Both the position numbers and the translations under genes were made by a program. The notes below the pieces were generated by a model. That model made no database searches and was not told where the DNA came from. It saw only the letters and a program-made list of their open reading frames with translations. This document shows positions 11,701 through 50,590 of a stretch of DNA of 64,000 nt, piece by piece. Origin of the DNA: a virus; the IMG/VR virus record IMGVR_UViG_3300020197_000017, positions 1-64,000 of that record. One strand, 5' to 3'. Numbering within the stretch: position 1 is the first letter of the stretch; every line of letters begins with the position of its first letter.

Positions 11701-14700
11701 GTGGCGGGTCCATCAACCTCGATGCCGCGTACAAGGTGGGCTTGGTCGTCATTCGGGACGAGTTCCCGGTCCCGGCACTGCAGGGTCTCCCCGAGTTCTT
11801 CAAGGGCGGTTCCGTGCCGTGGGGACTACCTGCCGTCACAGACCTGCCCTTCACGGTCACCGACGAGGACGGCAACCCCGTCGTCGGGTGGGACTGGGTC
11901 GAGCAGGCGCTGACCTGGTTCTTCCGGACGCTCAACAGACTGGGCTTCGACCTCCCCGAGGACGTGTCGCTCGACGTGCCTGAGACGCTGAAGGCGTTCT
12001 GGCAGATGCTCTTCAGCAGCTATGCGGTCGGTCGCCCGACCGCGCCGCAGTACCTGCGCCTCTACTTCCAGGAGCCGACGAGCTGCACGGTCTACGCTCC
12101 CACACCCTGCGCGCGGTACCAATGGGCGCTGCCCTCGCTGACGACTGCGGAGGTCGAGGGCACAGGGATCACGCTCCCCCTTCCGGACCTCGATGGGATG
12201 ACCGTCTCTGTGGAGGTGGAGCGACTGTCTGGGTCGACCACGCTGTCCGGTACCATGATGGCCGACTTCGGCACGGCCGCGACGCTGGAGGAACTCGCCG
12301 AGCTCCTCCAGACGCTCCTCGACCCCGGCGAGGAGTACCTCCTCGTCTCGGGCCCGGCTACCCCCACCGGGGCGCTCACGCTCACCCAGGTGGTGGGCGG
12401 CGTGGACGAGTACGTCTACGTCTCCGCCATCGACCTCACGGCCGGCATGCGCGTGCTCGGGTTCTACGGGCCCGCCCCCGCGAAGTTTCCGGAGCTCAAG
12501 ACCTCCACCAGCTGCTCCATCGCCTACGAACGGATCACGGTCGGCGCAGGCACCGCCCTCGCCTTCGGTCTCGAGATCGAGACCGACCTCACCCACCTGA
12601 CGCCTGTGGCTGCTTTCAACGGCACCTTCGAGCTCGGGGAGACTGTGACGTCGAGCGGCGGAGCCACAGGCGTCGTGTGGGCCATCGCGGACGACACCAC
12701 GGACGCGGTACTCGGACACCTGTGGTTGGTCGAGGTCACCGGCGTCTTTGCTGCCGCGGAGACGGTGACCGGGGACGATAGTGGCGCCACCTTCGTGATC
12801 AGCGTGGCTGACGAGACGGCCACAATCGTGGACACCAACGTCACGGACGGCGTCGACGACATCACGCGGACCTTCGAGGAAGTCGCGACGATGTTCCAGG
12901 CGGAGATCATCGCCTCTGTCGAGTTCAACGTCACTGCGGGTGCGGCGGCCGACTACGACGTGATCGAGATTTCCCCGACGCTCGCGATCACCGTCGAGTT
13001 CGAGGACAGGTCTGGAACGGGGGCCGGACCGGGGCGGTTCGTCTTCTCGGTCGAGGACACCGACCACGTCGACCTGGTCACCGGGATCAACATCGACAGC
13101 CCGATGAGCGGCACGCTGACCGACTTCGCGATCACCTACGTCAACTCGACGCTGCCGGCGACGACGAACTCGACCACGCTCAACGGCATGGACTACGACC
13201 CGACGGTGTCGCTGCTTGAGATCACCGTCAGCGACGGTACCACGCCGGTCGTACTGGCGCCGTCGCTGACCTACTGGGAGGCTCTCGCGTTCAAGATCGC
13301 GGTCCAGGACCTCATCGACGCCGGCGACTTCGAGGGAGCGGCCCAGGTATTGAACGCGGACACGGACTGGTGCGAGAGCAGCGGAACCCGCTACGTCCTC
13401 TGGGTGGACGGCGACACGGGGCTCGTGGCGCGCGGCATCGTCGGTGGGACGGCGTCCTCGATCAGTCTGACGAACCACACGACCTTCGGCTTCGCGACTG
13501 CCAGCGCGACTGGCAGCAGCTCCGTGTCGTGGATGGTGCAAGGAGCCACTGAGCCCGGCGAGACTCAGGCGGCCTTCCAGCACCCGCACGCACCGACGCT
13601 CTTCTCGACTGCGGTGGGGGCCGTGGAGCTCCTCTTCACGCCGTCGGACGAGGCGACTCCCTACCAGGTCTTCCCGGGGCAGACGAGCACCGGCGACACG
13701 GCGACGGTGGACCTTCCGCGTGACCTGGTCGTCGGCTCGCCCTACGAGGGGCAGCTGTCGGTGGAGGTCCGGTTCACGGACGCCGACTACGCATCGCCGA
13801 TCGAGCTCGACATCCGCGAGGAGTCCGATTGGCTCTACGTCTACGAGCAGCGGCGGCTCCTCGAGCACACCAGCTACGAGGCGTCGGACACGGACGTCTC
13901 GAGCGACCGAGTCTCCGCTGTCGTCACCTCCTTCGGCTCGAACAAGGTGCAGCTGCTCAACATGAGCAGTATCGGGCTGTCCGACGAGTTCACCTTCCTC
14001 GCCCCCAACACCGGGCTCGACGGGGACCAGGTGCAGGTGGGCGACGTCCTCTTCATCGAGGAGGGGGACGACCTGGGCGGCTACACCGTCACCGAGCGGT
14101 CAGCTTACGAGCTCGTGCTCGACAAGAACCTCACCGTTAGCTCCGGGCGGATCTACCGCTACGGGAACGACGGCATACTGGTACTCGGCGGCACGCCCAA
14201 GGTCACCTCGCCGACCGCGGCCTTCACGAACGACGACATCGGGAGGTACCTCACGATCTGGTTGTCCAACCGCGAGAACGTGGACGGCAGCTACAAGATC
14301 ACGGCGGTGGAGACGGATGGCTCAGGCTGCACCCTCGAGGGCGACCCCTTCACGCTGGAGGAGGCCGACCTCCACTGGGCGGTCGTGAAGGCCCCGACGG
14401 AGACCGTCGGGGCGTCGGAGACGGGTGGGCGTTCCGCACTCGTAGGCCTCCGTCCGGTGCGCATCTACAGCGGGGAGCCGACCAAGCTCCAGATCGTGAA
14501 GGTGAGTCCCACCCTCGATCGTGCGGAGGCCGCGGTTTACACCACGGTCGACGAGGACCTGTCGCCTCCCAGGAGCGGTGTGCGCCAGCCCTACAAGGTT
14601 GTCCGGCCCGGAACGCAGCACATCTCGGCGACCGCGATGAACGAACAGCGGTCTCGGGGGCTGTACTACTTCGACGTCCTCACCACCTCGCTTGGCGGGG

Positions 14701-15398
14701 ACGATGTCTACAACCTCCCGCGCGACGTGAAGATGGAGCCGGTCTTCGGGACGTACGACTCCTACGGGTACCGCATCGACGTGACCGACAGCCGTTTCAG
14801 CTTCTCCACGAGGGAGGAGGCGTCCCTGGTGCTCTCGTCGGTGTTCTTGCCCAACGGGCTCGATGACCAGCTGAGCAACTTCATCGCGCTGAACGGCCGT
14901 AGTATCCGGCTCGACTACGAGTACGCCCCCACCGTCGCCGAGGTTCAGAGCCTGCTGCTCTCCGACGACAACCGAGTCCTCTGCGCAGACCCGCTCGCGC
15001 GGCACTTCCTGCCGGCCTACGTCTCGCTGGACATCACCTACGTGGGCGGCAACAAGACGTCGACGGTTGCCGGTGCGCTGTCGGACTACGTCAACGGCCT
15101 GAGCGCCGTCGATGAGCTGGACCTCGCAGAGCTCGAGCGCATCCTACACAACAACGGGGTCGCGAAGTACGATCACCCCATCCGGCTGATCACGCTGACC
15201 CACGACCTCGACCGCCGCATCGTGGGTACGCAGGCGGAGGATCGAATCAACGACGACAACATCGCCTACAACGGCACGAACAGGACCACGTTCTTCATCG
15301 CAGGCACCGACGCGTCGACCTTCAGCGCGGAGGAGGATGTGCCGCCTGGTGCGCGGATCTGGCTGGTCCGGGAGTCCTCACGCTCGACGTTCAGGTGA
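8766..15398 (+). CDS. Giant baseplate J/gp6-like wedge protein, 2210 aa
   Basis: Residues about 1-290 show the baseplate J-like pattern. A helical start is followed by ALADLLITPLEVLMEPLKRE, a strand-rich region around GVVRIYFSAPTYLQILP, and GGADAETTTELLKRVRSSL with a following Val/Asp strand. That last part corresponds to the conserved 'GG.d.Esd..lr.R' element. The remaining ~1900 residues are not part of normal J proteins, which are about 300-650 residues long. They contain at least five copies of a short beta module of the form GDxLxIxxGxxxGxYxI (around bases 10447, 10720, 11599, 14037 and 14239), acidic beta domains and a helical insertion at about residue 1060. It probably forms the wedge and much of the baseplate periphery. 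The gene starts four bases after the gp25-like gene. Confidence 0.7.
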   Translation: MANTQSQAEAIRDLLVERLELFDSSLDTSEGSALWTQVIAPVFAQMGTDPFDTDIRTFLKDRVTQSFPTVSAQEGDALADLLITPLEVLMEPLKREIQIVRTGQSARYPEQMRLEDARDLAANFFIEWNSGSRATGVVRIYFSAPTYLQILPTTEFSTASGLIFYPSSAQTVRPETMILFRSGTEYYVDVPLTSADTGSAYSVAKGSITSVKGITGYTRLANLTDFAGGADAETTTELLKRVRSSLTERTLNVRRGIVARIETDFAAVSDVEVVGYGDPEMQRDIVTGGGEGSVIASGVCIIVGQFVLMFSTFENRGNDGLTQISEGDEIELNFWSFLYSTETGAANEKFTIDTILFDSRNSITEMPSILLFRISNVPSVTAPVAGMLPGVLPGVFAVVRTTGKIEISDIPGGITNPNTVRGTIEINDNEIHIGGHYDVWLRTSNTTESSATMEDIRSESALVEGSDLVVAGESDHYRHIVHRKYTVSSTSSFRLDGALVCAVTGARATIARVSSASGTYTYELWESNGVLFAVSDSVTDGTTTGTLTAVAYSDWEDAGVERGMVLALPRGNEEGSYRILKVDGPFLYLDINLTTTDKAQLFRVLSEVSLDLFNTKSIIVPFGDADGRDLGTTIGSTTVRTGINLQDYGAVEGDTLEILSGDDQGAYTISEWSSFGGTGPVLSSVMSATNSNLEYRVYRATQPVERPLLRVLPDGVVLLDGAGQDSGYKIPNAVPVDARPVHAYSGAKALSQGLNGFVLMDPGSGWAPTEDYATDISGYDWASWTGGSFEDFYTGDELTFRRSYTDESLPSDGYIAVISVHGSNGQMYLDSNLPDNAKNFLSSMREWLLDIISTFGFGGDEEELVNAFSPIKFGPNEDTALPLILQFEIIIPYEVFDGCNNVFVALPEFDWENEFADADTFNEAIGRFNDGDMTGRDPALLKASRGDVLTVLSGLNTGSYVIERVEAYYLINGGAVVDGGGSINLDAAYKVGLVVIRDEFPVPALQGLPEFFKGGSVPWGLPAVTDLPFTVTDEDGNPVVGWDWVEQALTWFFRTLNRLGFDLPEDVSLDVPETLKAFWQMLFSSYAVGRPTAPQYLRLYFQEPTSCTVYAPTPCARYQWALPSLTTAEVEGTGITLPLPDLDGMTVSVEVERLSGSTTLSGTMMADFGTAATLEELAELLQTLLDPGEEYLLVSGPATPTGALTLTQVVGGVDEYVYVSAIDLTAGMRVLGFYGPAPAKFPELKTSTSCSIAYERITVGAGTALAFGLEIETDLTHLTPVAAFNGTFELGETVTSSGGATGVVWAIADDTTDAVLGHLWLVEVTGVFAAAETVTGDDSGATFVISVADETATIVDTNVTDGVDDITRTFEEVATMFQAEIIASVEFNVTAGAAADYDVIEISPTLAITVEFEDRSGTGAGPGRFVFSVEDTDHVDLVTGINIDSPMSGTLTDFAITYVNSTLPATTNSTTLNGMDYDPTVSLLEITVSDGTTPVVLAPSLTYWEALAFKIAVQDLIDAGDFEGAAQVLNADTDWCESSGTRYVLWVDGDTGLVARGIVGGTASSISLTNHTTFGFATASATGSSSVSWMVQGATEPGETQAAFQHPHAPTLFSTAVGAVELLFTPSDEATPYQVFPGQTSTGDTATVDLPRDLVVGSPYEGQLSVEVRFTDADYASPIELDIREESDWLYVYEQRRLLEHTSYEASDTDVSSDRVSAVVTSFGSNKVQLLNMSSIGLSDEFTFLAPNTGLDGDQVQVGDVLFIEEGDDLGGYTVTERSAYELVLDKNLTVSSGRIYRYGNDGILVLGGTPKVTSPTAAFTNDDIGRYLTIWLSNRENVDGSYKITAVETDGSGCTLEGDPFTLEEADLHWAVVKAPTETVGASETGGRSALVGLRPVRIYSGEPTKLQIVKVSPTLDRAEAAVYTTVDEDLSPPRSGVRQPYKVVRPGTQHISATAMNEQRSRGLYYFDVLTTSLGGDDVYNLPRDVKMEPVFGTYDSYGYRIDVTDSRFSFSTREEASLVLSSVFLPNGLDDQLSNFIALNGRSIRLDYEYAPTVAEVQSLLLSDDNRVLCADPLARHFLPAYVSLDITYVGGNKTSTVAGALSDYVNGLSAVDELDLAELERILHNNGVAKYDHPIRLITLTHDLDRRIVGTQAEDRINDDNIAYNGTNRTTFFIAGTDASTFSAEEDVPPGARIWLVRESSRSTFR

Positions 15399-22929: not shown

Positions 22930-23552
22930 TCGGCATCGTACGCATTTTTCGGTCCTTGATGCCTCCGCGCATGTTCGCGGACGTCTTCAAGCAGAACCCC
23001 CAGATCCGCGGACATCTTACGCTCGAGACGCGGGAGCGCGGCAAGCTCCGTCAGCGCGTCGAGGGTGACAACATCTGGACGCTCACCGGACGCGAGTTCA
23101 TCGCCGAGCTCATCGCGCTGCGCGCGAGCAGTCCGCGGACCGCGTTCCGTGATGACCGCGTGGCCTACATCGGGATGGGATCCGGTGTGCAGTCGGAGGT
23201 CTCCGACATCACGTCGCTGGTGGATCCCGTGGTGTACAGGACCGGGGAGTTCCTGGCTCGTATCGATGCCCCGGCGACCTTCCCGACCTCGGGCACCTCG
23301 ACGACGAACACGGCCGTGCGCTTCGAGCGGGAGTTCACCGTTGGCGAAATCAGCCTCGGGTACAACGTGGTCCTCACCGAGGCCGGGCTGTTCACGGACG
23401 GCGACCCCGACGACGACTGGGACTACTCGGCGACCCCGACCTCCTTCGCCGACACCTCGGGGCGGGCTCCGATGGCCTACAAGACCTACGAGCCCATCAC
23501 CAAGACGACCGACTTCAACCTCCGCGCAATCTGGACCGTTCGGGTAGTCTGA
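22926..23552 (+). CDS. Phage tail/baseplate structural protein, 208 aa
   Basis: This gene is coupled by ATGA to the one before. Its sequence follows a pattern common among phage virion proteins. A helical N-terminus holds a Phe/Ile/Leu core (GREFIAELIALRASS). A strand with YIGMGSGVQ, a loop with FPTSGTSTT, and the ending GEISLGYNVVLTEAGLFTDG follow. The 'iG.Gsg..s' and 'ltEaGLf' elements are typical of this family, which is often annotated as a tail fibre or collar component. The role is probably in baseplate or fibre attachment, given the tail fibre gene two positions downstream. Confidence 0.6.
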   Translation: MIGIVRIFRSLMPPRMFADVFKQNPQIRGHLTLETRERGKLRQRVEGDNIWTLTGREFIAELIALRASSPRTAFRDDRVAYIGMGSGVQSEVSDITSLVDPVVYRTGEFLARIDAPATFPTSGTSTTNTAVRFEREFTVGEISLGYNVVLTEAGLFTDGDPDDDWDYSATPTSFADTSGRAPMAYKTYEPITKTTDFNLRAIWTVRVV

Positions 23553-24466
23553 TGCTGATCGATCCGCAGAGCTTTCATGTGTTCTGCAAGGAGGATGGCT
23601 CCGCACTGCGCGAGCGCATCTCGGTCCACAAGCTCGTTGGTAAGGGCTTGAGTGACAGTGATGGCGCTGGGTTGGCTACCGACAAGTACGTGATGCGCCT
23701 GGACGGGAAGCCCATCGGGAACATGCACGTGCGGAGTGACGGCAGCGTCCTCAAGTCGGCTATCCTCGACGAGTACCGCGGTCTCGGCCTCGGTAGGAAG
23801 ATGTACGGGGAAGTCGGGCGCATGTTGCCCGAGGGCGTGACCCTAAAGTCGGATGTGATTCACGTCTCTGGGGCGGCTACCAAGCTCTGGGATGATATGG
23901 CCGACCGCTCCACGGGAGGACTGCATGCTAAAAGAAACCCGCTGTTCCAGCGAGTACTGCACGCGCGGGATGGAACCGATACATCCATGCTTCCCGGAGC
24001 TGCTCCGATGGCGGAGTACAAGCCCGTATCTCCGATGGCAGTGCGCGAGTCTGGCAAGCGGTCGGCGTTCGAGCTGCATGTACCGGAGGCAGCCCGGCGC
24101 CCCACTGCGACAGTAGCACCTGCGAAACGCGCACCCACAGCATCACCAGTACCGCAGATCTCGCACGCTCCGGCGGCCCCGGTCCACACGCCGCCTCCGG
24201 CGGCCCCGGTCCACACGCCGCCTCCGGCGGCCCCGGTCCACACGCCGCCTCCGGCGGCCCCGGTCCACACGCCGCCTCCGGCGCGTGCAGTTCCGGCAGT
24301 CCATGTGCCGACAGCAGGCACAGCGGCGCCTGTGAAGGGGCCCTTGAGCAGGATGCTCGCGCATGTCACACCGGGGCGTGCGGCGGCTGGCGTGGGCGTT
24401 CTGGCCGCAGGCGGCCTACTGGCGCACCATCTCTACAAGAAGAGCCGGGGAGCTCCCAATGCCTAA
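23552..24466 (+). CDS. GNAT-like acetyltransferase domain with repeat linker and C-terminal hydrophobic helix
   Basis: Residues about 40-125 carry a GNAT signature: a strand with KPIGNMHV, then LDEYRGLGLGRKMYGEVGR, matching the acetyl-CoA-binding R/Q-x-x-G-x-G/A loop of motif A. A strand and helix with the VIHVSG element follow. GNAT enzymes move acetyl from acetyl-CoA to an amine; the substrate here is unknown. The middle is Pro/Ala-rich and contains four exact copies of a nine-residue APVHTPPPA unit. The C-terminus has a hydrophobic Ala/Gly/Leu helix (GVGVLAAGGLLAHHLYKK) followed by basic residues, so the protein may be membrane-anchored or built into the virion. The GC level is lower than in its neighbours. 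The start overlaps the upstream stop by one base, and the tail fibre start lies eight bases inside its end. Confidence 0.65.
   Translation: MLIDPQSFHVFCKEDGSALRERISVHKLVGKGLSDSDGAGLATDKYVMRLDGKPIGNMHVRSDGSVLKSAILDEYRGLGLGRKMYGEVGRMLPEGVTLKSDVIHVSGAATKLWDDMADRSTGGLHAKRNPLFQRVLHARDGTDTSMLPGAAPMAEYKPVSPMAVRESGKRSAFELHVPEAARRPTATVAPAKRAPTASPVPQISHAPAAPVHTPPPAAPVHTPPPAAPVHTPPPAAPVHTPPPARAVPAVHVPTAGTAAPVKGPLSRMLAHVTPGRAAAGVGVLAAGGLLAHHLYKKSRGAPNA
24172..24279 (+). repeat. Four tandem 27-bp repeats inside the GNAT-like gene
   Basis: Four perfect head-to-tail copies begin at 24172, 24199, 24226 and 24253. Each encodes a nine-residue Ala-Pro-Val-His-Thr-Pro-Pro-Pro-Ala unit. The lack of any base difference between copies points to recent expansion or ongoing slippage, so copy number may differ among relatives. 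Confidence 0.95.
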
Positions 24467-27400
24467 GTACATCCGCCGCCCGTTCGCGATGGGCAACACC
24501 GACAGCCCCGTGGTCACCCAGCCCATCCTGCGGGGCTCGGTGATGAAGGACTCGTCCGGTGAGTTCGCGAGCCTTCTGATTCCCAGCGAGCTCGCGATCG
24601 AGACGGAGGACGGCGCCACGTCGGGCGGCATCTCCGTCGTCTTTAAGGGCACCACCATGGTGCAGGTACTCGACGACATCAACTCGGCGCTGACGGGCTA
24701 CGCCACGGCGGAGGAGTACGAGGGCTGCCTGGTCTTGAAGAGTGTCGGGACAGGCGAGGGCGCCTACATCCGCATCATGCCTCCGGTGTCGGGGTTCGAC
24801 GATGCCTCCGCCGTCTTCGGCTTCGAGGTGCACCCGCACCCCCTCGCCACCGTCTCCGCTAGGGACCTCCTCGACACCCCGGTACGCCCGCGGCAGCAGG
24901 AGAACCCGATCGGCACGAAGTTCATCGGCACCGGAGAGGACCGCATCGGCAAGAGCTACAACCGCGCGCTCGACATGCTGGCGCGCAACGGCGACCTGCT
25001 CTACACGTGGCTCCAGCGCTCCGTGGCGCGGAAGGCCACCATCGTGGTCGACTCGACCAGGCACGCGGCCCAGCTCGACACGAACGTGGACGGGACCATC
25101 GACCAGGTGGACCTCTCGGATCTCTCGGTGTTCAACGCGGACCTGGCCGGGCTCCGCCTGTACGTCGGCAAATCGCTGGGGCTGACGCGCAACAGCAACC
25201 TCGCGCAGATCTCCACCGTCTACCAGGTGGCCGACGGGGAGATGAAGGAGATCCCGGCGGGCGACCGCACGGTGCGTATCGGTGCCGTCACCCGCGGACA
25301 GCGCGGTGGTGTGCTCCCGTCGTTCGCAGACGACATCACCGCCCCGACCTCTCCGGTACCGAACACGACGGGCGTCTCCGCCGACGGGGGCAATGCGCTC
25401 GGTGTCGACCGCGCCAAGCACTCCGGCGTCACCATCACCGAGGTCCGCCAGCGTACGACTATCGTGTGTGCTGGCGCGACCTTCGAGACCAACGGTGTCG
25501 TCGCCGGTGACGTCGCCACCATCACCGGTGCCGGGGTCTCCTCCCCCTTCAACCACAACGGTACGTACCGGGTGGACGTGGTCGTGTCCGAGGAAGAGCT
25601 CGTGCTCCGCCCGGCGGACGAGACCACGGACGCGCAGGAGCTGAACCCGGCTGCGGGCGCCTTCGGCACGGTCGTCATCAGCTCTGGCGGGAACTGGGAG
25701 AGCGGGATCTGGCTCAGCTTCTACCCGCCGATGCCGCGCATCCCGGAAGGCGGCAAGTTCATCCTGACCGTCCCGGTCGAGAGCGCGCTCGGCGAGGTCG
25801 CCCTCGAGGACATGGTCAACGGGAGTGTCCGGACGGTGGCCGGCGTCGACGGTTGGTCACTGCTGAACTTGTGGAAGCAGGTCAGCCTCGACGGGGCCTA
25901 CCAGGGGATGGGAGCCGCCCGCGGCGGTGGCTTCTTCGCAAGCATCACCAACCGGCCGTTCCGGCTGGATCTTCGGCACACTGCCACGCTGTCCGACGGG
26001 TCTATCGACCGCACCAGCACGGGTGCCGCTACCCTCGACGCGCACACGCTGCGCCTGACGGCCGCCTCGACGGACCGCTTCGACACCGAGGATGTCGGGA
26101 AGACCATCCTCCTCACCGCCGGCCCCTTCCTCACCAAGGAACCCTGGACGGTCACGCGCCTGATCGACAACGCGACCGTCGAGCTCGCACCGCCCATACA
26201 CAGGGTCGGGTACCAAGAGACCGCTGGAACCACGATCTCGGTGACGTCGTGGATACTCCTGGACGGGGACGCCATCGACGTCCTCGGGGCCCAGCACGTC
26301 GTCTCTCCCGAGTACTTCGGGGACACTGACCAGGCACCTGCTGCGGGCGGCTACGTGTACTCGCGCGAGCAGCGGGACCTGGGGACCACCGACCCTCCGA
26401 CGGCCGGACTGTTCTCGCTCCTCCACCTCGAGCGCGTGCGCCTGCGCCGCAGCGGGGTGAACATCACGATCGTGACCGCAGGTCCTACGACCGCGAGCAA
26501 CACGCTCCCGCTCCCGTTCGACCCCGAGGACACCTACAACATCTACGGGGAGACGTACGAGACGAAGATGGCGTCCGGGCAATCCTCGATCACCTTCGTG
26601 CGCATCCTTCACGGGCCAGACGCCGGCCTGTACCGCGTGAAGGGCCTGAAGAGTGTCTCGGTCAGTACGAACGCGGTCGTGCTGCAGCACATCGACGGCA
26701 GCCCCGTCACGCTTACCAACGGCACGACGCCGAGCATCGCCTTCTACAACGCGACGCTGGCAGCCTCCGTGCCCCTCTACGGGGGGCCCGGCGCTGCGAG
26801 TACCTGGATGGGCGGGCTGAGCCTGTTCGTCGACGGGTACGAGCAGGACGTGGCCTTCGTGGCCCCCGTGCGCATCAACTGGCGAGGGACCGGTACCGGG
26901 CTCTACGCCTGGCTGAACGACGAGGAGTTCAAGGCCTTCGACAATGGCGATGGAGCTGACGGAGCCCTCCTTACAGGGGTTCTCTTCGCGCCAGCGGAGG
27001 GAATCGACATCAAGATGACCGGAGCTGACACAGGTGCGAATGAGCGTAGGTCTGGATACGTCCTGCGCGCACGCGCGCACACAAGTCGCTTTGATTTCAA
27101 TCTACAAGATCCTGGCGCAGCTGGTGCACTCTTTCACTCGCAGAAGGGGTTTGCAGGCTACTTCGGTCAGACTGGTAAGGACCCCGCTGTTGTGGTCCTG
27201 AAGGTAGATGCGGGTGCTGCTGGGGATGAGTCGGCCAGGTTCTCCGGACTCTCCCCGAGTGCTGCGTTGCTTGTCGGGCGGGCAGGCCCGATTAGTACCG
27301 AGAACGTGTCCGGACCTGCGGGGAAGGGCTCGGCTGTAGAGCTCTCAGGCTCACTCTATATCCACCGAGGTAGCTACGTCGGTGGTGCTTCAGTCCCGAC

Positions 27401-30400
27401 GTGGTCTGAGGGCGGTGTCTACGTCGAAGATGTTCTTGGCGCAGGTCGCTGGGCCTATCCTACAGTGGGGATTTACGACTTCGACGGGTCCCCGTACTAC
27501 GGTACAGGGTCGTACTCTGGCTGGGAAGCGCCTACACGCCTTGGAAATCCGGGGGTCATCTATCCGCCGTCGAGCAACGACGCTGATGTGGCTGCCGAGG
27601 TCCTGGCTACAGACTACACCCTATTCAACTTCAAGCATGTCGGCATCGTGCACATCACTGACGTGACGGCACTGACACCGTCACTTACTGCACCGTTCAA
27701 TCGTTTCATTGGATGCCGTTTCAAGCTCGACGACCCGGCGGCGGATCTTGATCAGGTCGAGTTCGCTATTATCGGCTCGATGATGCCGGCTGAAAATGAG
27801 CTCTATCTCGCACTCCACCATCCGACTCAGACTATTGTCGTGGATGCTGGACACTCCAGGTACTTCAAGATTCTTGGACAGCGGTGGTACCAGTCCCATA
27901 TCGACGTGGCTGATTGGGTTCAGGTCGGCACAGAGGATGCGTCGGCATCGCGTACACAGCTTCCACTGCTGACGTGTGATCCGGACGTCCTGAACTCACG
28001 TGTGTCTGTAGTGCCGGACAACGTGCAGTTTCCGAGCCTTGGCCTCCAGACCTACTGCGCGTGGGCTGCTGCTGCGGACGGTGTGTCCATCGGTGCGGCG
28101 AGTGCGGATACATCGACGATGACATCCGTGCACGTCACTGCGAATGCGTATGCGGCTGCACAGCACTGGGATGGAGATTTCGATGACCCTATCTTCACAC
28201 ACGGCTGGTCAACCGATGCCAAGGAACCACGGTCGCCGTTCCCGAACTCCAGCACCATCTCGAATGTAGACGCGAACCACAACTCCAGCGAGGTCCTCGA
28301 CGGAAGCTACGCGGGTAGCTTTGCTGCGGACGACTACACGGCTACGTTCCCTGGCGGAACTGCTCAGGTTGCGTGGTCTTCATCCTGGGGCGGCTCCCTT
28401 GAGATTAGTGGAAACAGACATGCGCAAGTGAGAATCTGGCAGCGTGGACGTACTTTCGTGATGACCAACCATCTGGCGGTACGGGTACAACTCCGTGCCG
28501 CAGTGACGAGACCGCCGATCTTTATACCGGGAACGCGCATGTTCACCATCGCACTGACCAAGAATGATGGGACAGTGGTGGCGCACGCGGCGGTGGGAAT
28601 CCCTACGGACAACCGACCCCACGATGTTTCGGCGACCCTCGAAGTGGACGGTGTGACGAACGCAGCGGCGGACGCTCTCGGTCTCTCCAAAGAGGTGCTG
28701 TCCCTCCACGTCACGGCGCTGGTTGCCCTTGAGGCGGACAACGAAGTCATCTCGATCCTCGAGTTCAAGACTGAACCTGTCACGCGACCTCTTGTTACCA
28801 GCGGCCCTCAGATCGTGACAGGTTCAGTCCTGGCGCATGGATTTCGCTTCACGGACCCGGTCCCTGGTTTTGACACGAAGGGCCCTGCGGATGTCCGTCT
28901 CCTCGGTGGACTTGACTACGCTCGAAATGAAAGTTGGCCAACGTACAACGAGGGTGTCGATGGTTGGGAACATGCCAGCTGCACTGGTACGCAAGAACTC
29001 CGCTGCGGCCCTGGTCTCGTGCGGATGCGGTCAGATGAACAGTATCTCAACTGGAAGATCGCGTTGACTCTCTTGGCCAACGCGCTCGGTGCTACAGACA
29101 TCGACGCCTGGATGACAATATTGGCTTATCAAGCCCTGAACGGGTACGAAAGCGGCACAGAGCCAGCAGGTACATTTGGACCACTAGAGGACGAAGCAAA
29201 TGCCGTGTATGAGAAGTGTGTGCTGGCTGTTAACGAAGGAAACCTCGTAGACAAGGTTGAACTCGCCGAGGAGGCTATGTACCTGGGCAAGGTCCTGGTC
29301 GATGCTCTCCGTGTTGTCGCAAGCCGGGTAGTGGATGGCTCGGGCGACATGGCCGAGGATCTATACGACTACGCGAGACGGGTAGAGGACGCGATGTACT
29401 TCGAACTTCCAGCTACGGGCGAGTACGCCGCGCTTCTTCACGATGAGCCTGAATCGAACTGGATCCGCCCTTGGGTCGATTACTACCGTCTCTTCAGTCA
29501 GGGGGTTCATTCCGCCGCGATCACGCTCTACAACGGAGCCTTCGACCCTCTCTGGTACGCAAAGCAAGCGGACGTCCTCTACAACGACACGGGAACGACT
29601 ACCGAACGTCTGCATTCGGACGCTTTCGTTCCGTGCGGTACCACAGGGTTTCTGGTACCTGTCAATCCTCCACACGGGGCCGTGCTGACCTCGCTCAGTA
29701 TCGGTCTCAGCTTTCGCGCACACAAGTCAGGTCGTTGGGGAATCTACTTCGACATGGTGGACAGCCTTGCTGCTATGGGTACAAGCGGAGCGCCTTCTAC
29801 TGACTATGTCGAGGTTGCCCGTGACGAAGATTGGTTGGCCAAGCAGGGTGTGCGTGTAGAGCTCTGGAGATACAACGCCGTCGATTTCGACGTGAGTGAG
29901 GCTGACTGGGCTTCTTGGTCGGAACATGAACCAGAGTTCGGCTTCGGGGAGCGCTTAGCTCGATTCACGATCAATCTGTCGGAAGTAGCGACCCCGTCGG
30001 ATACTGCCAATACGGTTAGGGAGGCGTGGCGACAGCCTAGTTTTCTCGGTGACTATGGTAGGGACGTGTACGTCGGTAAGGAGCACTTTGCGCGACGTTC
30101 CTGGAACCTGATCGACACAGCCTTCGGTAGTGGTGATGCACGTGCGCGTGTGGATCGCCGACACTACGCCTACATGGTCGTGGTGCGCTTCTTTGGAGGT
30201 ATGCGACAGACCCACGCTTCTGTCGACCTTCCCTACGTACGAGGAGATGCGCCGGGGACGGGGTTTGATTCCAGGTGGGAGATCCCTCAGATGATTACGC
30301 GCAGGAGCGGTACTTCTGACGGGGAGCCCGTTGAGGGTCAGATCTACGGACACTTCGATGCGGCCTATAATGTCGACGGTCTCGAGAACATGAACACGCC

Positions 30401-30491
30401 ATGGGAAGAGAAGTCATTTCCTCCCCAAGTCAAGTTCCGCGGATTGAGACTCGGATGGATCACAGATCGCGCTGGGGATGGGGGCTGGTAG
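24459..30491 (+). CDS. Giant tail fibre protein, 2010 aa, mosaic
   Basis: The ATG at 24459 is preceded by CCGGGGAG. A longer in-frame ATG at 24363 lies within the preceding gene and yields an implausible Trp/Arg-rich leader. The N-terminal ~830 residues are beta-rich with modules like those of the giant baseplate proteins (VVAGDVATITGAGV near 25498; DVGKTILLTAGP near 26092). From about base 26940-27080 onward the base composition drops and codon use becomes relaxed, while the frame stays open. The distal part has beta segments, an acidic helical stretch around residues 1570-1670 (YEKCVLAVNEGNLVDKVELA) and a Trp/Tyr/Phe-rich C-terminus. This fits a conserved attachment half and an exchanged receptor-binding half. 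No peptidase or chaperone motif is recognised at the end. It is the last rightward gene before a strong terminator. Confidence 0.75.
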   Translation: MPKYIRRPFAMGNTDSPVVTQPILRGSVMKDSSGEFASLLIPSELAIETEDGATSGGISVVFKGTTMVQVLDDINSALTGYATAEEYEGCLVLKSVGTGEGAYIRIMPPVSGFDDASAVFGFEVHPHPLATVSARDLLDTPVRPRQQENPIGTKFIGTGEDRIGKSYNRALDMLARNGDLLYTWLQRSVARKATIVVDSTRHAAQLDTNVDGTIDQVDLSDLSVFNADLAGLRLYVGKSLGLTRNSNLAQISTVYQVADGEMKEIPAGDRTVRIGAVTRGQRGGVLPSFADDITAPTSPVPNTTGVSADGGNALGVDRAKHSGVTITEVRQRTTIVCAGATFETNGVVAGDVATITGAGVSSPFNHNGTYRVDVVVSEEELVLRPADETTDAQELNPAAGAFGTVVISSGGNWESGIWLSFYPPMPRIPEGGKFILTVPVESALGEVALEDMVNGSVRTVAGVDGWSLLNLWKQVSLDGAYQGMGAARGGGFFASITNRPFRLDLRHTATLSDGSIDRTSTGAATLDAHTLRLTAASTDRFDTEDVGKTILLTAGPFLTKEPWTVTRLIDNATVELAPPIHRVGYQETAGTTISVTSWILLDGDAIDVLGAQHVVSPEYFGDTDQAPAAGGYVYSREQRDLGTTDPPTAGLFSLLHLERVRLRRSGVNITIVTAGPTTASNTLPLPFDPEDTYNIYGETYETKMASGQSSITFVRILHGPDAGLYRVKGLKSVSVSTNAVVLQHIDGSPVTLTNGTTPSIAFYNATLAASVPLYGGPGAASTWMGGLSLFVDGYEQDVAFVAPVRINWRGTGTGLYAWLNDEEFKAFDNGDGADGALLTGVLFAPAEGIDIKMTGADTGANERRSGYVLRARAHTSRFDFNLQDPGAAGALFHSQKGFAGYFGQTGKDPAVVVLKVDAGAAGDESARFSGLSPSAALLVGRAGPISTENVSGPAGKGSAVELSGSLYIHRGSYVGGASVPTWSEGGVYVEDVLGAGRWAYPTVGIYDFDGSPYYGTGSYSGWEAPTRLGNPGVIYPPSSNDADVAAEVLATDYTLFNFKHVGIVHITDVTALTPSLTAPFNRFIGCRFKLDDPAADLDQVEFAIIGSMMPAENELYLALHHPTQTIVVDAGHSRYFKILGQRWYQSHIDVADWVQVGTEDASASRTQLPLLTCDPDVLNSRVSVVPDNVQFPSLGLQTYCAWAAAADGVSIGAASADTSTMTSVHVTANAYAAAQHWDGDFDDPIFTHGWSTDAKEPRSPFPNSSTISNVDANHNSSEVLDGSYAGSFAADDYTATFPGGTAQVAWSSSWGGSLEISGNRHAQVRIWQRGRTFVMTNHLAVRVQLRAAVTRPPIFIPGTRMFTIALTKNDGTVVAHAAVGIPTDNRPHDVSATLEVDGVTNAAADALGLSKEVLSLHVTALVALEADNEVISILEFKTEPVTRPLVTSGPQIVTGSVLAHGFRFTDPVPGFDTKGPADVRLLGGLDYARNESWPTYNEGVDGWEHASCTGTQELRCGPGLVRMRSDEQYLNWKIALTLLANALGATDIDAWMTILAYQALNGYESGTEPAGTFGPLEDEANAVYEKCVLAVNEGNLVDKVELAEEAMYLGKVLVDALRVVASRVVDGSGDMAEDLYDYARRVEDAMYFELPATGEYAALLHDEPESNWIRPWVDYYRLFSQGVHSAAITLYNGAFDPLWYAKQADVLYNDTGTTTERLHSDAFVPCGTTGFLVPVNPPHGAVLTSLSIGLSFRAHKSGRWGIYFDMVDSLAAMGTSGAPSTDYVEVARDEDWLAKQGVRVELWRYNAVDFDVSEADWASWSEHEPEFGFGERLARFTINLSEVATPSDTANTVREAWRQPSFLGDYGRDVYVGKEHFARRSWNLIDTAFGSGDARARVDRRHYAYMVVVRFFGGMRQTHASVDLPYVRGDAPGTGFDSRWEIPQMITRRSGTSDGEPVEGQIYGHFDAAYNVDGLENMNTPWEEKSFPPQVKFRGLRLGWITDRAGDGGW

Positions 30492-30504
30492 GGCTAAAGA
30501 AAGA

Positions 30505-30534
30505 GTGCGACGGCTTGAAGTTCAGCCGTCGCAC
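30505..30534 (+). terminator. Terminator for the rightward tail block
   Basis: An 11-bp perfect stem (GTGCGACGGCT with its complement) and an 8-base loop begin 14 bases after the tail fibre stop. A pyrimidine-rich run (TCCTTCTCTC) follows. The upstream side is purine-rich (AAAGAAAGA), so the hairpin could act in both directions. Confidence 0.75.
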
Positions 30535-30600
30535 TCCTTCTCTCAATCCTCTTCACAAAGGACGCCGTCGTTGGGACTCTCCTCCGATGTGAAAGATGAG

Positions 30601-30626
30601 GCCGACCGGGTGCTGACCCGGTCGGC
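30601..30626 (-). terminator. Terminator for the leftward replication block
   Basis: An 11-bp perfect stem (GCCGACCGGGT and its complement) has a 4-base loop. Read leftward, it begins two bases after the stop codon of the last small gene (30628) and is followed by CTCATCTTTC, a moderately T-rich run. It lies about 70 bp from the rightward terminator, with transcription converging on the pair. Confidence 0.75.
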
Positions 30627-30627
30627 T

Positions 30628-30813
30628 TCATGGCAATGGAACTCCGAGGCGGACAAGCTGACCGAGAAGGGCCGCGTCCGCCGAGTTGACGTCGAGGTAG
30701 ACGGAGAGGTTGGTCTCCGCCCACTCGATGAGGTCCTCCGGAGTCATACCCCGGAGGACCTCGATGTCAACCTCGACGGAACGCCCGACCTCGTGGCCCT
30801 TCTCTCGGGTCAG
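30628..30813 (-). CDS. Small acidic protein with no normal start codon (CTG start or -1 frameshift product)
   Basis: A 61-codon stretch directly after the upstream gene's stop reads like real protein: EVDIEVLRGMTPEDLIEWAE, then TNLSVYLDVNSADAALL. Its stop lies two bases before the leftward terminator. There is no ATG, GTG or TTG near its beginning. It either starts at CTG in a CTGA overlap with the upstream stop, or is the tail of the 257-residue upstream protein reached by a -1 frameshift, or begins at the internal ATG about 23 codons in (39 residues). No clear ribosome site was found for any option. Function unknown. Confidence 0.5.
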   Translation of the reverse strand: MTREKGHEVGRSVEVDIEVLRGMTPEDLIEWAETNLSVYLDVNSADAALLGQLVRLGVPLP

Positions 30814-31583
30814 TCCGAGACGCGCTTCAGCACGTCCGCGAGGGACTGGTCCTTCTTGTTGATGTCGTTCAGGTAGATGGACTCCACGCCGACGTGGACC
30901 TCGTCCAGCCGGCCCTTGAGGCTCTTGAGGGCCTTCGCGTTGCCGGTCTCGTTGGCGTCGACCTTGGCGTCCAGGGCCTTGATGACGTCACCCAGCGCGG
31001 CCTGGTTCTTCAGGACCTGCTCGAGGAGCTGGATGACCACGTCGTTGCCGCCGCCGTCCTTCTCGCTCTTCTCGCTCTTCCCCTCCGCCTTGGCCTCGGG
31101 CTCGTCGCGACGACCGCGGCCGCGCCCACGCGGGGCCTCGTCCTCGGGCTTCTTCGCCGGCTCCTCGTCCTCGCTGCGCCGCCCGCGACCGCGACCCCGG
31201 GGCGTCTCGTCCTCGTCGCCGCCCTTCTTGGTGTCCTCGTCCTTGGAGGCGCGCCCGCGTCCGCGCGGGGCATCTTCCTCCTCGACCTTCGCGCGCCCTC
31301 GACCCCGGGGCGCCTCGTCCTCGTCCTTGGCGGAGGAGCGGCCGCGGCCGCGCGGGGTCTCCTCGTCGGCGCCCTTGCCGCCGCCCCCGCCCCCCTTCTT
31401 CTTCTCGGCCGCGACCAGGTCGAGCACCTGGTCGTCGTCCAGCTTCTCGATGCCCTTGAAGTGGGGCTTGAGGAGCTCGATGAGCCCGTCGGGATCCATC
31501 TGGAAGAGCTTGAGGTCGTTCGGCTTGGCGAGGCCCGCGACAATGGCGAGCTCGCGGAGGTTGGCCTTCTTCACAGTTGCCAT
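30810..31583 (-). CDS. Protein with acidic PRGRGR repeats and C-terminal coiled coil, 257 aa
   Basis: The ATG at 31583 has a strong GAGAGGAA site. The frame stays open to a GTG at 31802, but that extension looks non-coding in its second half. Residues about 1-65 form a helical domain (NLRELAIVAGLAKPNDLKLF). Residues about 65-170 are low complexity: a Gly run, then five or more copies of an acidic stretch followed by PRGRGR. Residues about 185-257 form a Leu-rich coiled coil (VVIQLLEQVLKNQAALGDVI). The same DE-rich PRGRGR repeats occur at the end of the zinc-ribbon protein at 40173-41519. The Arg-Gly repeats alternating with acid suggest nucleic-acid binding or condensate formation, which is inference. 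Its stop overlaps the following small frame. Confidence 0.75.
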   Translation of the reverse strand: MATVKKANLRELAIVAGLAKPNDLKLFQMDPDGLIELLKPHFKGIEKLDDDQVLDLVAAEKKKGGGGGGKGADEETPRGRGRSSAKDEDEAPRGRGRAKVEEEDAPRGRGRASKDEDTKKGGDEDETPRGRGRGRRSEDEEPAKKPEDEAPRGRGRGRRDEPEAKAEGKSEKSEKDGGGNDVVIQLLEQVLKNQAALGDVIKALDAKVDANETGNAKALKSLKGRLDEVHVGVESIYLNDINKKDQSLADVLKRVSD

Positions 31584-40172: not shown

Positions 40173-41519
40173 CTACTCGCGGACGCGGCGCCGGCGCGGC
40201 GGCTCGTCGTCCTCGTCACGGCCGCGGCCGCGCGGCTCGTCCTCGGGCACGTCCTCGTCATCACGGTCACGGCCCCGACCGCGCGGCGCGTCCTCGTAGT
40301 CGTGGTTCCGTCCACGACCCCGCGGCTCCTCGTCCTCCTCGGACTTGCCGCCGTAGCGCTTGTACTTGCCCGGTCCCGCGGTGCTCGGGAACGGGTTCTT
40401 ACACCCGAGCTTGTCCGCAATCCAGTCGTTGTCGTGGGGCGCATGGACCTTCTCGAAGTCCCACTGCGCCAGGGCGTTCTTGCGGATGTCCCCGTCCTCG
40501 GTGAACACCCAGTTCCCGGTTCCCTCGTCGAGCTTCGGGAAGTACTCCTTGCCGTCCTTCTCCCACTCGATCATGTACTCTCCGTTCGGGAGCTGGTACT
40601 GGTCGAGCGGCGTGATCTTCTTGATCACGATGTGGGAGTTGGTACCCTCACCCTCCTTGCGGATGGTGGCCACGACGTCGAAGGCCGTCAGCGGCTCCGG
40701 TCGCTTGCACCTGTTGCAGGAGTTCTCGGGCACGGGGATGCCTACGTGCTTGCACTTCTTGCAGCGGCTGCGCTCGACGGCGAAGGCCGCGATCTCCTTG
40801 CGGCCCATGTCGTCCTTCTCGACGTCGGCGAGCTCGGCGCCGCACTTCTCGCAGAAGAACGCCACCGGGCTGAGGTCACCGCCGCAGCGGCAGAACTTCC
40901 CGGCCTGCTCGTCGATCGCCGAGAGCTCGTCCCGGTGCCCGGAGCCGAGCTCGACGTATTTCTTCTGGAAGAAGCGGACGGTGCCCTCCTCGACGTACCG
41001 GTCGAGGTCCTTGAGGATGCGGTTGCGGTCGCTGGGCTTCTCGACCAGCTCCCAGACCAGCACGGGCTTGCCGCGCTTCTCGCCCTCCTCGTACTTCACG
41101 GTACGCCCGTCGCGCACGAGCGGGACCCGCTCGTAGAGGCCGAAGTGCAGGAGGCCGAAGGAGAAGGTGTTCTTGATGCTGATGCGCCCGTCGCCCTCGG
41201 CCTGGCGCTTGCAGTGCAGGCAATCCTTCTCGCCCGCGTCGATGTTGCACCGGCCGGTGTAGTAGGAGCCCTTGCCCTGGGGCTTGAGCTTCACCCCGTG
41301 CATCTTGCAGGTGTGGAAGTGGGCCAGGCCGACCTCGCCGGTCTCCTCGTCCACGTCCGCGGGATTCGGGTAGGCGCCGCGGGTGAGGAGTATGTCCTCG
41401 AAGTCGGCCTTGGGGATATCGTAGCGGTCCCGCCAGCTCCCCACCCAGCCATTGCCCTTGCCCTTCTGCTCACGGTTGATCACCGAGCGGCGCAGGCCGC
41501 TCACACGTTGAGTACTCAT
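40173..41519 (-). CDS. Zinc-ribbon protein with acidic PRGRGR tail; candidate ssDNA-binding protein, 448 aa
   Basis: Three Cys clusters are visible. The first is around residues 71-103 (Cys71, 91, 100, 103). The second is around 210-230 (FCRCGG and FFCEKCG). The third is around 250-275 (CKKCK and CNRCKRP). The rest is mixed alpha/beta with aromatic and Lys residues (TFSFGLLHFGLYERVPLVR). The last ~60 residues alternate acidic stretches with PRGRGR, ending in basic RRRRV. A long acidic, flexible end is common in phage ssDNA-binding proteins, and the gene lies between primase and polymerase. That role is therefore the best guess, but no OB-fold signature is certain. It starts inside the primase gene (50-base overlap), with GGAG nine bases before the ATG. 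Confidence 0.6.
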   Translation of the reverse strand: MSTQRVSGLRRSVINREQKGKGNGWVGSWRDRYDIPKADFEDILLTRGAYPNPADVDEETGEVGLAHFHTCKMHGVKLKPQGKGSYYTGRCNIDAGEKDCLHCKRQAEGDGRISIKNTFSFGLLHFGLYERVPLVRDGRTVKYEEGEKRGKPVLVWELVEKPSDRNRILKDLDRYVEEGTVRFFQKKYVELGSGHRDELSAIDEQAGKFCRCGGDLSPVAFFCEKCGAELADVEKDDMGRKEIAAFAVERSRCKKCKHVGIPVPENSCNRCKRPEPLTAFDVVATIRKEGEGTNSHIVIKKITPLDQYQLPNGEYMIEWEKDGKEYFPKLDEGTGNWVFTEDGDIRKNALAQWDFEKVHAPHDNDWIADKLGCKNPFPSTAGPGKYKRYGGKSEEDEEPRGRGRNHDYEDAPRGRGRDRDDEDVPEDEPRGRGRDEDDEPPRRRRVRE

Positions 41520-42519
41520 GGTACAGATGTCTCCACTGACGCATTGTTAGAGGCCGCCCGAGTGCCTCGTCGATTTCGGTCTTATTCAAGTCGTCGGGTT
41601 GCAACTTGAGTTCTGGACAGGGATAGCGCATGACCGTTACGTCCATCCCACGGAGCCTATAACCGATCTTGGACGTTCCTATACGCCCCCAACGGTCATT
41701 ATCGAGGCATAGAACCACGTTTGTTCCGAGACGCTCCAGGAACATTTGCTGCGTGTCGCTCATGCTCGTGCCCATCAGCGCCACCGTGTTGTAGTAGCCC
41801 TGCTGCACCAGCCAGAGGCACGCCTTGTAGCCCTCTGCGACGTAGATCGGACCAGGATCTTCCTGGCGGTGGTAGATGCCGGGGTAGACCTTCTCCCACC
41901 GCCAGAAGAAGCGCCTGTTGTTGATATGGTAGTTCTTGAATCCCATCTCCACGAGCTCCCGCTCGTAGACGCGGTATTTTCCACCTCCTCCAGGGTCGTT
42001 GGGTTTGCCGATGATCCCTGCGAGCGTACCGTGTAGGTCCCGCAAGACGTAGGTCGTCCGGCCTCGTTCGACGTCCACTCCGACGTCGTTGTCGACGAGC
42101 ACTGTCTCCTTGAACCCCGCATCCACCAGCTCCGACGGGACGTACTCAAAGAGACCGAGGATCTTCTCCGGTAGGGGGTAGCTGGTGATGAAGATGCCCC
42201 CACTCGAGATGCTGGTACGTTTCTTCTGGCTCGGTGCCACCAGGAACGGGCGTACCCGCTCCATGGTCCGGTCGATGTAGCTGTCCGACTTCTTGAGGCG
42301 CTTCAACAGTTGCGGAAGGCCACCGGCCCCGCAACCCGCGAAACAGTGCCACTGGCCGGTCTCCTCATTGAAGCTGAAGGAGGGTGATGAACGCCCCGGC
42401 TCCTCGCCGTGGATCGGACAGAACCCGATCCAGTTGCCCCCTGCTCCCTGTCGAAGCCCCGCAACGAATGTCGACGCGACTGAGATGACCGGCCCGCTGT
42501 TCTGGGCCTGTGCTGCCAT
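41470..42519 (-). CDS. dnaG: DnaG-type DNA primase
   Basis: This 349-residue enzyme has an N-terminal CHC2 zinc finger (Cys34, His37, Cys59, Cys63; FCPIHGEE and HCFAGCGAGG). The Toprim core has Glu229 in VAEGYKACLWLV and Asp273/Asp275 in LCLDND. It would lay RNA primers for the PolA-type polymerase and work with the DnaB-like helicase encoded just upstream. It lacks a long C-terminal helicase-binding domain, so it is shorter than bacterial DnaG (about 600 residues). Its last 50 bases overlap the start of the next gene. Codon use is a little less GC-biased than in neighbours. Confidence 0.88.
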   Translation of the reverse strand: MAAQAQNSGPVISVASTFVAGLRQGAGGNWIGFCPIHGEEPGRSSPSFSFNEETGQWHCFAGCGAGGLPQLLKRLKKSDSYIDRTMERVRPFLVAPSQKKRTSISSGGIFITSYPLPEKILGLFEYVPSELVDAGFKETVLVDNDVGVDVERGRTTYVLRDLHGTLAGIIGKPNDPGGGGKYRVYERELVEMGFKNYHINNRRFFWRWEKVYPGIYHRQEDPGPIYVAEGYKACLWLVQQGYYNTVALMGTSMSDTQQMFLERLGTNVVLCLDNDRWGRIGTSKIGYRLRGMDVTVMRYPCPELKLQPDDLNKTEIDEALGRPLTMRQWRHLYHEYSTCERPAPLGDQP

Positions 42520-49994: not shown

Positions 49995-50590
49995 ACGCTG
50001 ACGTCTACAGGACCTGCTTCGCAGAACTCAGCAAGGCCGCCTCGCTGGGCGGCGCCGCCCGCGCCGTAGGGAACTTCGCCCGCGATGCCGGAGAACTCAC
50101 ACTGCGTGGGTTCACACCTTCCGGAATCCGGGAGGGCTTCCAGGCCGGTAAGCAGCAGCTCCTGCACGGGGACGCATTCTCGCGTATCGGGGTGGGCGTA
50201 GCGGTTCCGTTCACGGCATGGGACACGGCGAACACCCTTCGCACCAAGACGGACCCTGTGAGCGGCAAGCCCATCGGAGTGTTCGAGCGCGGTGCAACCG
50301 CCCTGGGGAAGGTCACCTCTGGGGTGGCAGGCATGACCGCGTTGAACCATGGAGGTCTTTTTCGCGGGCTCGGGGTCGCGATGGCTGCGGGGCTCGGCAC
50401 GGACATGATTACGCGGCACGCGGGACGGTTCCTTGATCGGAAGTTGATGCCGACGGCGCCGCAGGGCGGCGCCGCGATCGGGCGCATGAGCAGTATGTAC
50501 ACCGCGCGCCCGACCGGGCGCATGGGCAGTATGTACGCCGCGCACCCAGCGACTGCCGCTGGCGGTACACCCGTCGCTCGGGGGGCGTGA
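49991..50590 (+). CDS. Tagged protein with Gly/Ala-rich hydrophobic region, 199 aa
   Basis: The start is in an ATGA overlap. The N-terminus (MNADVYRTCFAELSKAA) has the same helix-plus-K-x-A pattern as other tagged proteins in this window. The middle includes hydrophobic, Gly-rich stretches (GVGVAVPFTAWDTAN, VTSGVAGMTALNHGG, GLGVAMAAGLGTDM) that might form membrane-active helices. The C-terminus contains two imperfect repeats of GRMSSMYTARPT / GRMGSMYAAHPA. The portal start overlaps its stop. It might be an internal head protein ejected with DNA; this is inference. Confidence 0.7.
   Translation: MNADVYRTCFAELSKAASLGGAARAVGNFARDAGELTLRGFTPSGIREGFQAGKQQLLHGDAFSRIGVGVAVPFTAWDTANTLRTKTDPVSGKPIGVFERGATALGKVTSGVAGMTALNHGGLFRGLGVAMAAGLGTDMITRHAGRFLDRKLMPTAPQGGAAIGRMSSMYTARPTGRMGSMYAAHPATAAGGTPVARGA

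What the first reader, a model, noticed from the sequence alone, without database searches (positions are those of the whole stretch)
26940..30491. Composition break inside the tail fibre gene
Up to about base 26940 codons strongly prefer G or C in the third position. After about 27080 many third positions are A or T while the frame stays open. The junction lies within one gene, with a conserved-looking N-terminal half and a foreign-looking distal half. This is the expected trace of a receptor-binding domain exchange.
Basis: seen in the sequence. Interest (0 to 1): 0.6.

Follow-up and report, generated by a model that had tools for sequence, protein, structure and literature searches.

The report
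Recombination scar in phage tail fibre
A giant tail-fibre gene of a GC-rich environmental phage switches abruptly, within about 20 bases, to a different codon style two-fifths of the way along; the protein itself carries on unbroken for another 300 residues, so the most likely cause is an ordinary allele swap with a lower-GC relative that happened to cut inside a conserved stretch, and not a receptor domain joined at that point.

Summary
In the 2010-aa tail-fibre-like gene (24459-30491), GC3 falls from 0.91 to 0.62 at nt 26943 (95% range 26928-26949; log-likelihood gain 113 versus at most 7.4 in 200 shuffles). It stays flat to the stop codon, while GC1 and GC2 do not change. The next strongest break among the long window genes tested gains 18.

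In three relatives the protein is homologous straight across the step: codons 829-1140 are 51-65% identical to them and tree with them (99/98), as codons 133-828 do (100/100). The real protein break is about 310 codons further on (codon ~1140, nt ~27,880), ahead of a CBM4-like fold. Beyond it the best tree puts the window with another clade whose GC3 is 0.4-0.7 (91/93; the alternative is not rejected, p=0.10). Relative L006 shows the reverse: a distal exchange with almost no GC3 step.

Best explanation: homologous replacement of the last 3.5 kb from an unsampled, lower-GC3 relative, with the left crossover in a conserved FDNGD motif and the right one near the terminators after the gene. This is ordinary phage mosaicism, cleanly recorded. 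The donor was not found; in-situ codon change or assembly chimerism cannot be fully excluded.

The parts
24459..30491 (+). 2010-aa giant tail-fibre-like gene
   Evidence: Open frame; homologues over its full length in L004, L005, L006 and low-GC phages; follows a Baseplate_J gene cluster. No Pfam or PHROG hit.
24459..26942 (+). proximal part, codons 1-828, GC3 0.91, the phage's usual codon style
   Evidence: 64-66% identity to L004/L005/L006; tree 100/100.
26928..26949 (+). left breakpoint: GC3 step, inside the FKAFDNGD motif conserved in the clade
   Evidence: Profile-likelihood 95% range; alignment.
26943..27875 (+). middle part, codons 829-1139: low GC3 (0.60) but clade-type protein; a small beta domain (codons ~1033-1139) is predicted at its end with modest confidence
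27876..30488 (+). distal variable part, codons 1140-2010: protein homology to the own clade falls to about 35%, similar to that of low-GC phages L045-L047
28074..28784 (+). predicted CBM4-like beta-sandwich (codons ~1206-1442), candidate glycan or receptor-binding domain
   Evidence: AlphaFold2 model; VIA-align Z 11.9, 152 aligned, rmsd 3.3 to CBM4-2 2y64; Foldseek hits to CBM11/22/4 and viral tail fibres. Part of the matched range has low confidence.
29034..29456 (+). helical insert (codons ~1526-1666), mostly absent from L004, L005 and L006; length but little sequence shared with L045-L047
   Evidence: low model confidence.
30423..30488 (+). C-terminal motif (PPQVKFRGLRLGWITDRAGDGGW), conserved across the clade and recognisable in most of the wider family, still in low-GC3 codons
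30498..30631 (.). two facing terminator-like hairpins (30498-30541, 30596-30631); GC rises again between or just after them: likely right end of the imported tract
   Evidence: Self-matches on the opposite strand, sequence, GC profile.

Best explanation
The last ~3.5 kb of the fibre gene (nt ~26943 to ~30,550) replaced the resident segment by homologous recombination with a related phage of lower GC3. The left crossover fell in a conserved stretch (FKAFDNGD), so about 310 codons of shared, clade-type protein came in together with the variable distal part that holds the CBM4-like domain. The right crossover fell near the terminators after the gene. The frame stayed open because donor and recipient are homologous at both ends. 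Shown here: the step, its sharpness, continuous protein homology across it, the later protein break, and lower-GC3 relatives with matching codon usage. Inferred: the direction of the exchange, the single event, the donor, and any effect on host range.
For: Sharp step and homogeneous tract. Codon usage of codons 829-1128 and of 1129-2010 is best matched by low-GC family members L047, L045 and L050, while the own proximal half is among the two worst of the references for both pieces. At amino acids identical in window, L004 and L005, the window uses other codons after the step (GC3 0.56 against 0.81-0.92 in L004) but not before it. Protein clade is unchanged across the step. A lower-GC3 sister of the clade exists (L062: locus GC 0.594, fibre GC3 0.66). 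In the distal part the best tree joins the window to L045-L047 (GC3 0.4-0.7) at 91/93, whereas the same grouping is rejected for the proximal part (p 6e-36). The phage carries a UvsX-like recombinase.
Against: No donor was found in IMG/VR, phage records or GTDB genomes. Protein divergence from L004/L005 does not jump at the step, so the donor would have to be about as far from them as the recipient is. GC1 of the distal part (0.63) is higher than in homologues of similar GC3 (0.56-0.58), i.e. its amino acids look like those of a GC-rich phage. The AU test does not reject grouping of the window's distal part with L004/L005 (p 0.10).
Confidence: 0.72

Rival explanations
1. Receptor-binding domain exchange exactly at the composition junction: a conserved N-terminal half fused to an unrelated distal half at ~26940.
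For: The gene has a more conserved first part and a variable distal part with a CBM-like fold; distal exchange between clades occurs (L006).
Against: Codons 829-1140 are 64-65% identical to L004/L005 and 51% to L006, and stay in the same clade; the protein break is at ~1140, about 930 bases later.
Confidence: 0.06
2. In-situ change of synonymous codons in the distal tract (relaxed or different codon selection, or a local mutation bias), without import.
For: Only third positions changed, GC1/GC2 are the same; protein clade does not change at the step; 13 of 14 homologues have a lower distal than proximal GC3 after stratifying by amino acid, 10 of them with z>2.
Against: The step is within about 20 bases and flat afterwards, which gradual relaxation does not give; the effect (odds ratio 6.4) is far larger than in any relative (0.97 to 2.6); both A and T third bases rise, so no one-base mutator signature; L006 has almost no drop.
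Confidence: 0.12
3. Metagenome assembly chimera: reads of two related phages were joined in the conserved motif.
For: The step lies in a conserved stretch, and the donor-like phage is not otherwise seen in the collections searched.
Against: Two false joins would be needed (left at 26943, right near 30,550), both keeping gene order and an open frame to the conserved C-terminus.
Confidence: 0.1

Closest known systems
Mosaic tail-fibre genes with exchanged distal parts (for example the phage P2 tail fibre genes, Haggard-Ljungquist 1992, as cited in PMC2266997; Alteromonas phage A5, PMC10579305, abstract only)
   Same: Recombination inside the host-recognition module; distal part varies across phage clades.
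   Different: Here the composition junction and the protein-homology junction are about 310 codons apart, which points to a crossover in shared flanking sequence. No effect on host range is tested.
GC3 landscapes of mosaic phage genomes (Lucks 2008, PMC2266997)
   Same: Third-position composition varies along one phage genome; that paper discusses lateral transfer as one possible cause.
   Different: Here a single sharp step inside one gene, checked against relatives at protein level.
CBM4/CBM22-like carbohydrate-binding modules
   Same: Predicted beta-sandwich at codons ~1206-1442, Z up to 11.9.
   Different: Sequence identity 6-15% and no Pfam hit; ligand unknown.

Membership tests
Recombinant (mosaic) phage tail-fibre gene | Two parts of one gene with different phylogenetic affinity | tested here: inconclusive
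   Proximal: clade of L004-L006, grouping with L045-L047 rejected at p 6e-36. Distal: best tree with L045-L047 (91/93), grouping with L004/L005 not rejected (p 0.10).
Recombinant (mosaic) phage tail-fibre gene | Abrupt change of composition or codon usage inside the frame | tested here: met
Recombinant (mosaic) phage tail-fibre gene | Donor allele identified (confirming, not strictly defining) | tested here: inconclusive
   No close relative of the tract in the scans; these scans are pattern-based and metagenomes were not searched, so the donor may be unsampled.
Receptor-domain exchange at the composition junction | Protein homology to relatives ends at the junction | tested here: not met
   Homology continues to codon ~1140.
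Phage tail fibre or receptor-binding protein | Located next to baseplate genes; long; conserved first part, variable distal part | tested here: met
   Baseplate_J at 8766-15398 upstream in the same cluster.
Phage tail fibre or receptor-binding protein | Binds the host surface | not testable with these tools
   Needs binding or host-range assays.
CBM4-like carbohydrate-binding module | Beta-sandwich CBM fold | tested here: met
   Z 11.9, rmsd 3.3, 152 aligned to 2y64; predicted model, locally pLDDT 60-85 but under 50 in part.
CBM4-like carbohydrate-binding module | Sequence match to a CBM family model | tested here: not met
   No Pfam family at E<=1 for the whole protein; hence described as CBM4-like in fold, not as a member.

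The most novel reading that the evidence does not exclude
The low distal GC3 is not an import but a property kept by selection or by a local process in these giant fibres: distal parts use rarer codons (13 of 14 homologues), for instance to slow translation during trimer folding, and the window phage is an extreme case with a sharp functional boundary at codon 828.
Probability: 0.07. Interest if true: 0.5.

Novelty: new member of a known kind. Interest (0 to 1): 0.27.

Why it matters
It is a clean natural record of how a tail fibre is replaced: composition, protein homology and tree topology mark different boundaries. It warns against reading a GC step as a domain boundary. It also brings to light a giant fibre family (about 1,800-2,840 aa) in large environmental phages whose window member has no Pfam or PHROG match.

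Tried and rejected
Pfam and PHROG scans of the fibre gave nothing. Searches for the donor with the two halves and with alignments gave only the same clade or distant types. The structure of codons 740-1180 was poor (mean pLDDT 40), so no fold claim is made for the junction itself. A one-base mutator process was considered: third-position A and T both rise, which does not fit; no template/variable repeat search for a DGR was made. A within-gene GC3 trend common to long genes was considered and rejected for the window: other long genes gain 1-18 log units against 113.

Full report
WHAT WAS CHECKED. The window is part of a 68,792-base IMG/VR virus record. Two relatives with matching gene order here are contigs of 183 and 188 kb, so the record may be a fragment. 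The gene in question is best read from ATG 24459 (MPKYIRRPF, as in the homologues) to 30491, 2010 aa. GC3 along the gene has one strong change point at codon 828, nt 26943: 0.906 before, 0.620 after, log-likelihood gain 113; 200 shuffles reach at most 7.4. The 95% profile range is nt 26928-26949, a step beats every ramp tested, and the tract after it is homogeneous (p=0.65). GC1 and GC2 stay the same. Outside the gene, total GC recovers at about nt 30,600, between or just after two facing terminator-like hairpins. The other genes picked by a simple script have GC3 of about 0.76-0.94.

COMPARISON WITH RELATIVES. Neighbouring genes were used to find relatives in IMG/VR: L004, L005 and L006 have the same fibre gene. 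The protein aligns without interruption across codon 828. By bins of about 100 codons from 632 on, window against L004 is 69, 49 (732-828), then 59, 66, 64, and only then 34, 36, 28%. By local alignment, codons 829-1140 match L005, L004 and L006 at 65, 64 and 51%. The protein break is thus near codon 1140 (nt ~27,880), about 930 bases after the composition step. At amino acids identical in window, L004 and L005, the window uses other codons after the step (GC3 0.56; L004 0.81-0.92) and similar ones before it (0.90; L004 0.92-0.97).

WIDER FAMILY. Searching records of more distant relatives gave fibres of about 1,825 to 2,840 aa in phages with locus GC 0.45-0.68. L062 is the sister of the clade of window, L004, L005 and L006 in the proximal tree (97/97) and has GC3 0.66, so lower-GC3 phages close to the clade exist. 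Synonymous codon usage of both the middle and the distal tract of the window is best predicted by the lower-GC3 members L047, L045 and L050, and its own proximal half is among the two worst predictors.

TREES. Codons 133-828: window with L004-L006, 100/100. Codons 829-1140: same clade, 99/98. Codons 1141-2010: window, L004, L005 and L045-L047 form one distal type, and L006 is outside it (100/100 in the realigned set; lower support). Inside that type the best tree joins the window to L045-L047 (91/93); a grouping with L004/L005 is not rejected (p=0.10). For the proximal part a grouping with L045-L047 is rejected (p=6e-36). L006 is the mirror case: from about codon 930-1030 on its protein departs from L004/L005, with almost no GC3 change (0.95, 0.90, 0.94). 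Composition and domain exchange are therefore separate signals in this family.

WHAT THE DISTAL PART MAY DO. A predicted model of codons 1130-2010 (mean pLDDT 51, with two better-modelled regions) contains a beta-sandwich at codons ~1206-1442 that matches carbohydrate-binding modules of families 4, 11, 22 and others (best Z 11.9, 152 residues, rmsd 3.3) and, in the viral library, tail fibre proteins. Sequence identity is 6-15%, and no Pfam model matches. A role in glycan or receptor binding is an inference from fold, gene position and variability. The helical insert at codons ~1526-1666 is mostly absent from L004-L006.

EXPLANATION. The simplest account is homologous replacement of the segment from ~26,943 to ~30,550 by the allele of a related phage of lower GC3, with the left crossover in the conserved FKAFDNGD motif. 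This explains the sharp edge, the open frame, the protein continuity, the flat tract to the stop codon and the foreign codon style. A UvsX-like recombinase is encoded nearby, which makes such exchange plausible but does not show it. Not explained: the donor was not found, the GC1 of the tract is that of GC-rich homologues, and the divergence from L004/L005 is not raised just after the step. Earlier import of a distal type into the common ancestor with L004/L005, whose own GC3 falls mildly (0.92 to 0.82 at codon 937; 0.89 to 0.77 at codon 1211), followed by a second exchange in the window lineage, would fit but is not shown.

A FAMILY-WIDE TREND. With amino acids stratified, 13 of 14 homologues other than the window have lower GC3 in the distal than in the proximal part (odds ratios 1.16 to 2.64; L052 is the exception at 0.97; the window 6.4). 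The homologues are related, so this is not 14 independent cases, and no second gene family was tested in the same way. Repeated import from lower-GC phages or weaker codon selection could both cause it.

VERDICT. Observation confirmed; interpretation partly supported: an exchange, but the composition step is a crossover point in conserved sequence and not the edge of the receptor-binding domain. This is ordinary phage mosaicism with an instructive geometry.

Noticed in passing
23552-24466 (+): 304-aa ORF with an acetyltransferase-looking start (by eye, no family hit) and 4-5 PAAPVHTPP repeats lies between the 208-aa gene and the fibre; in L004 and L005 the fibre starts about 15-20 bases after the 208-aa gene, so this ORF is extra in the window phage.
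   Followed up: partly
30810-31583 (-): Protein with tandem 'DEAPRGRGR'-like repeats; repeat number and wording vary in L004, L005 and L006.
   Followed up: no
L006 fibre from about window-codon 930-1030 on: Fibre of L006 changes distal type relative to L004/L005 with almost no GC3 change: a domain exchange without a composition scar.
   Followed up: partly
fibre homologues L004-L006, L045-L052, L059, L062, L065: Distal GC3 lower than proximal GC3 in 13 of 14 homologues after stratifying by amino acid.
   Followed up: partly
50590-52725 (+): Portal-like gene: GC3 falls from 0.94 to 0.78 after codon 538, the second strongest within-gene break tested in the window.
   Followed up: no
41470-42306 (-): Gene with GC3 0.76, low for this phage.
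   Followed up: no
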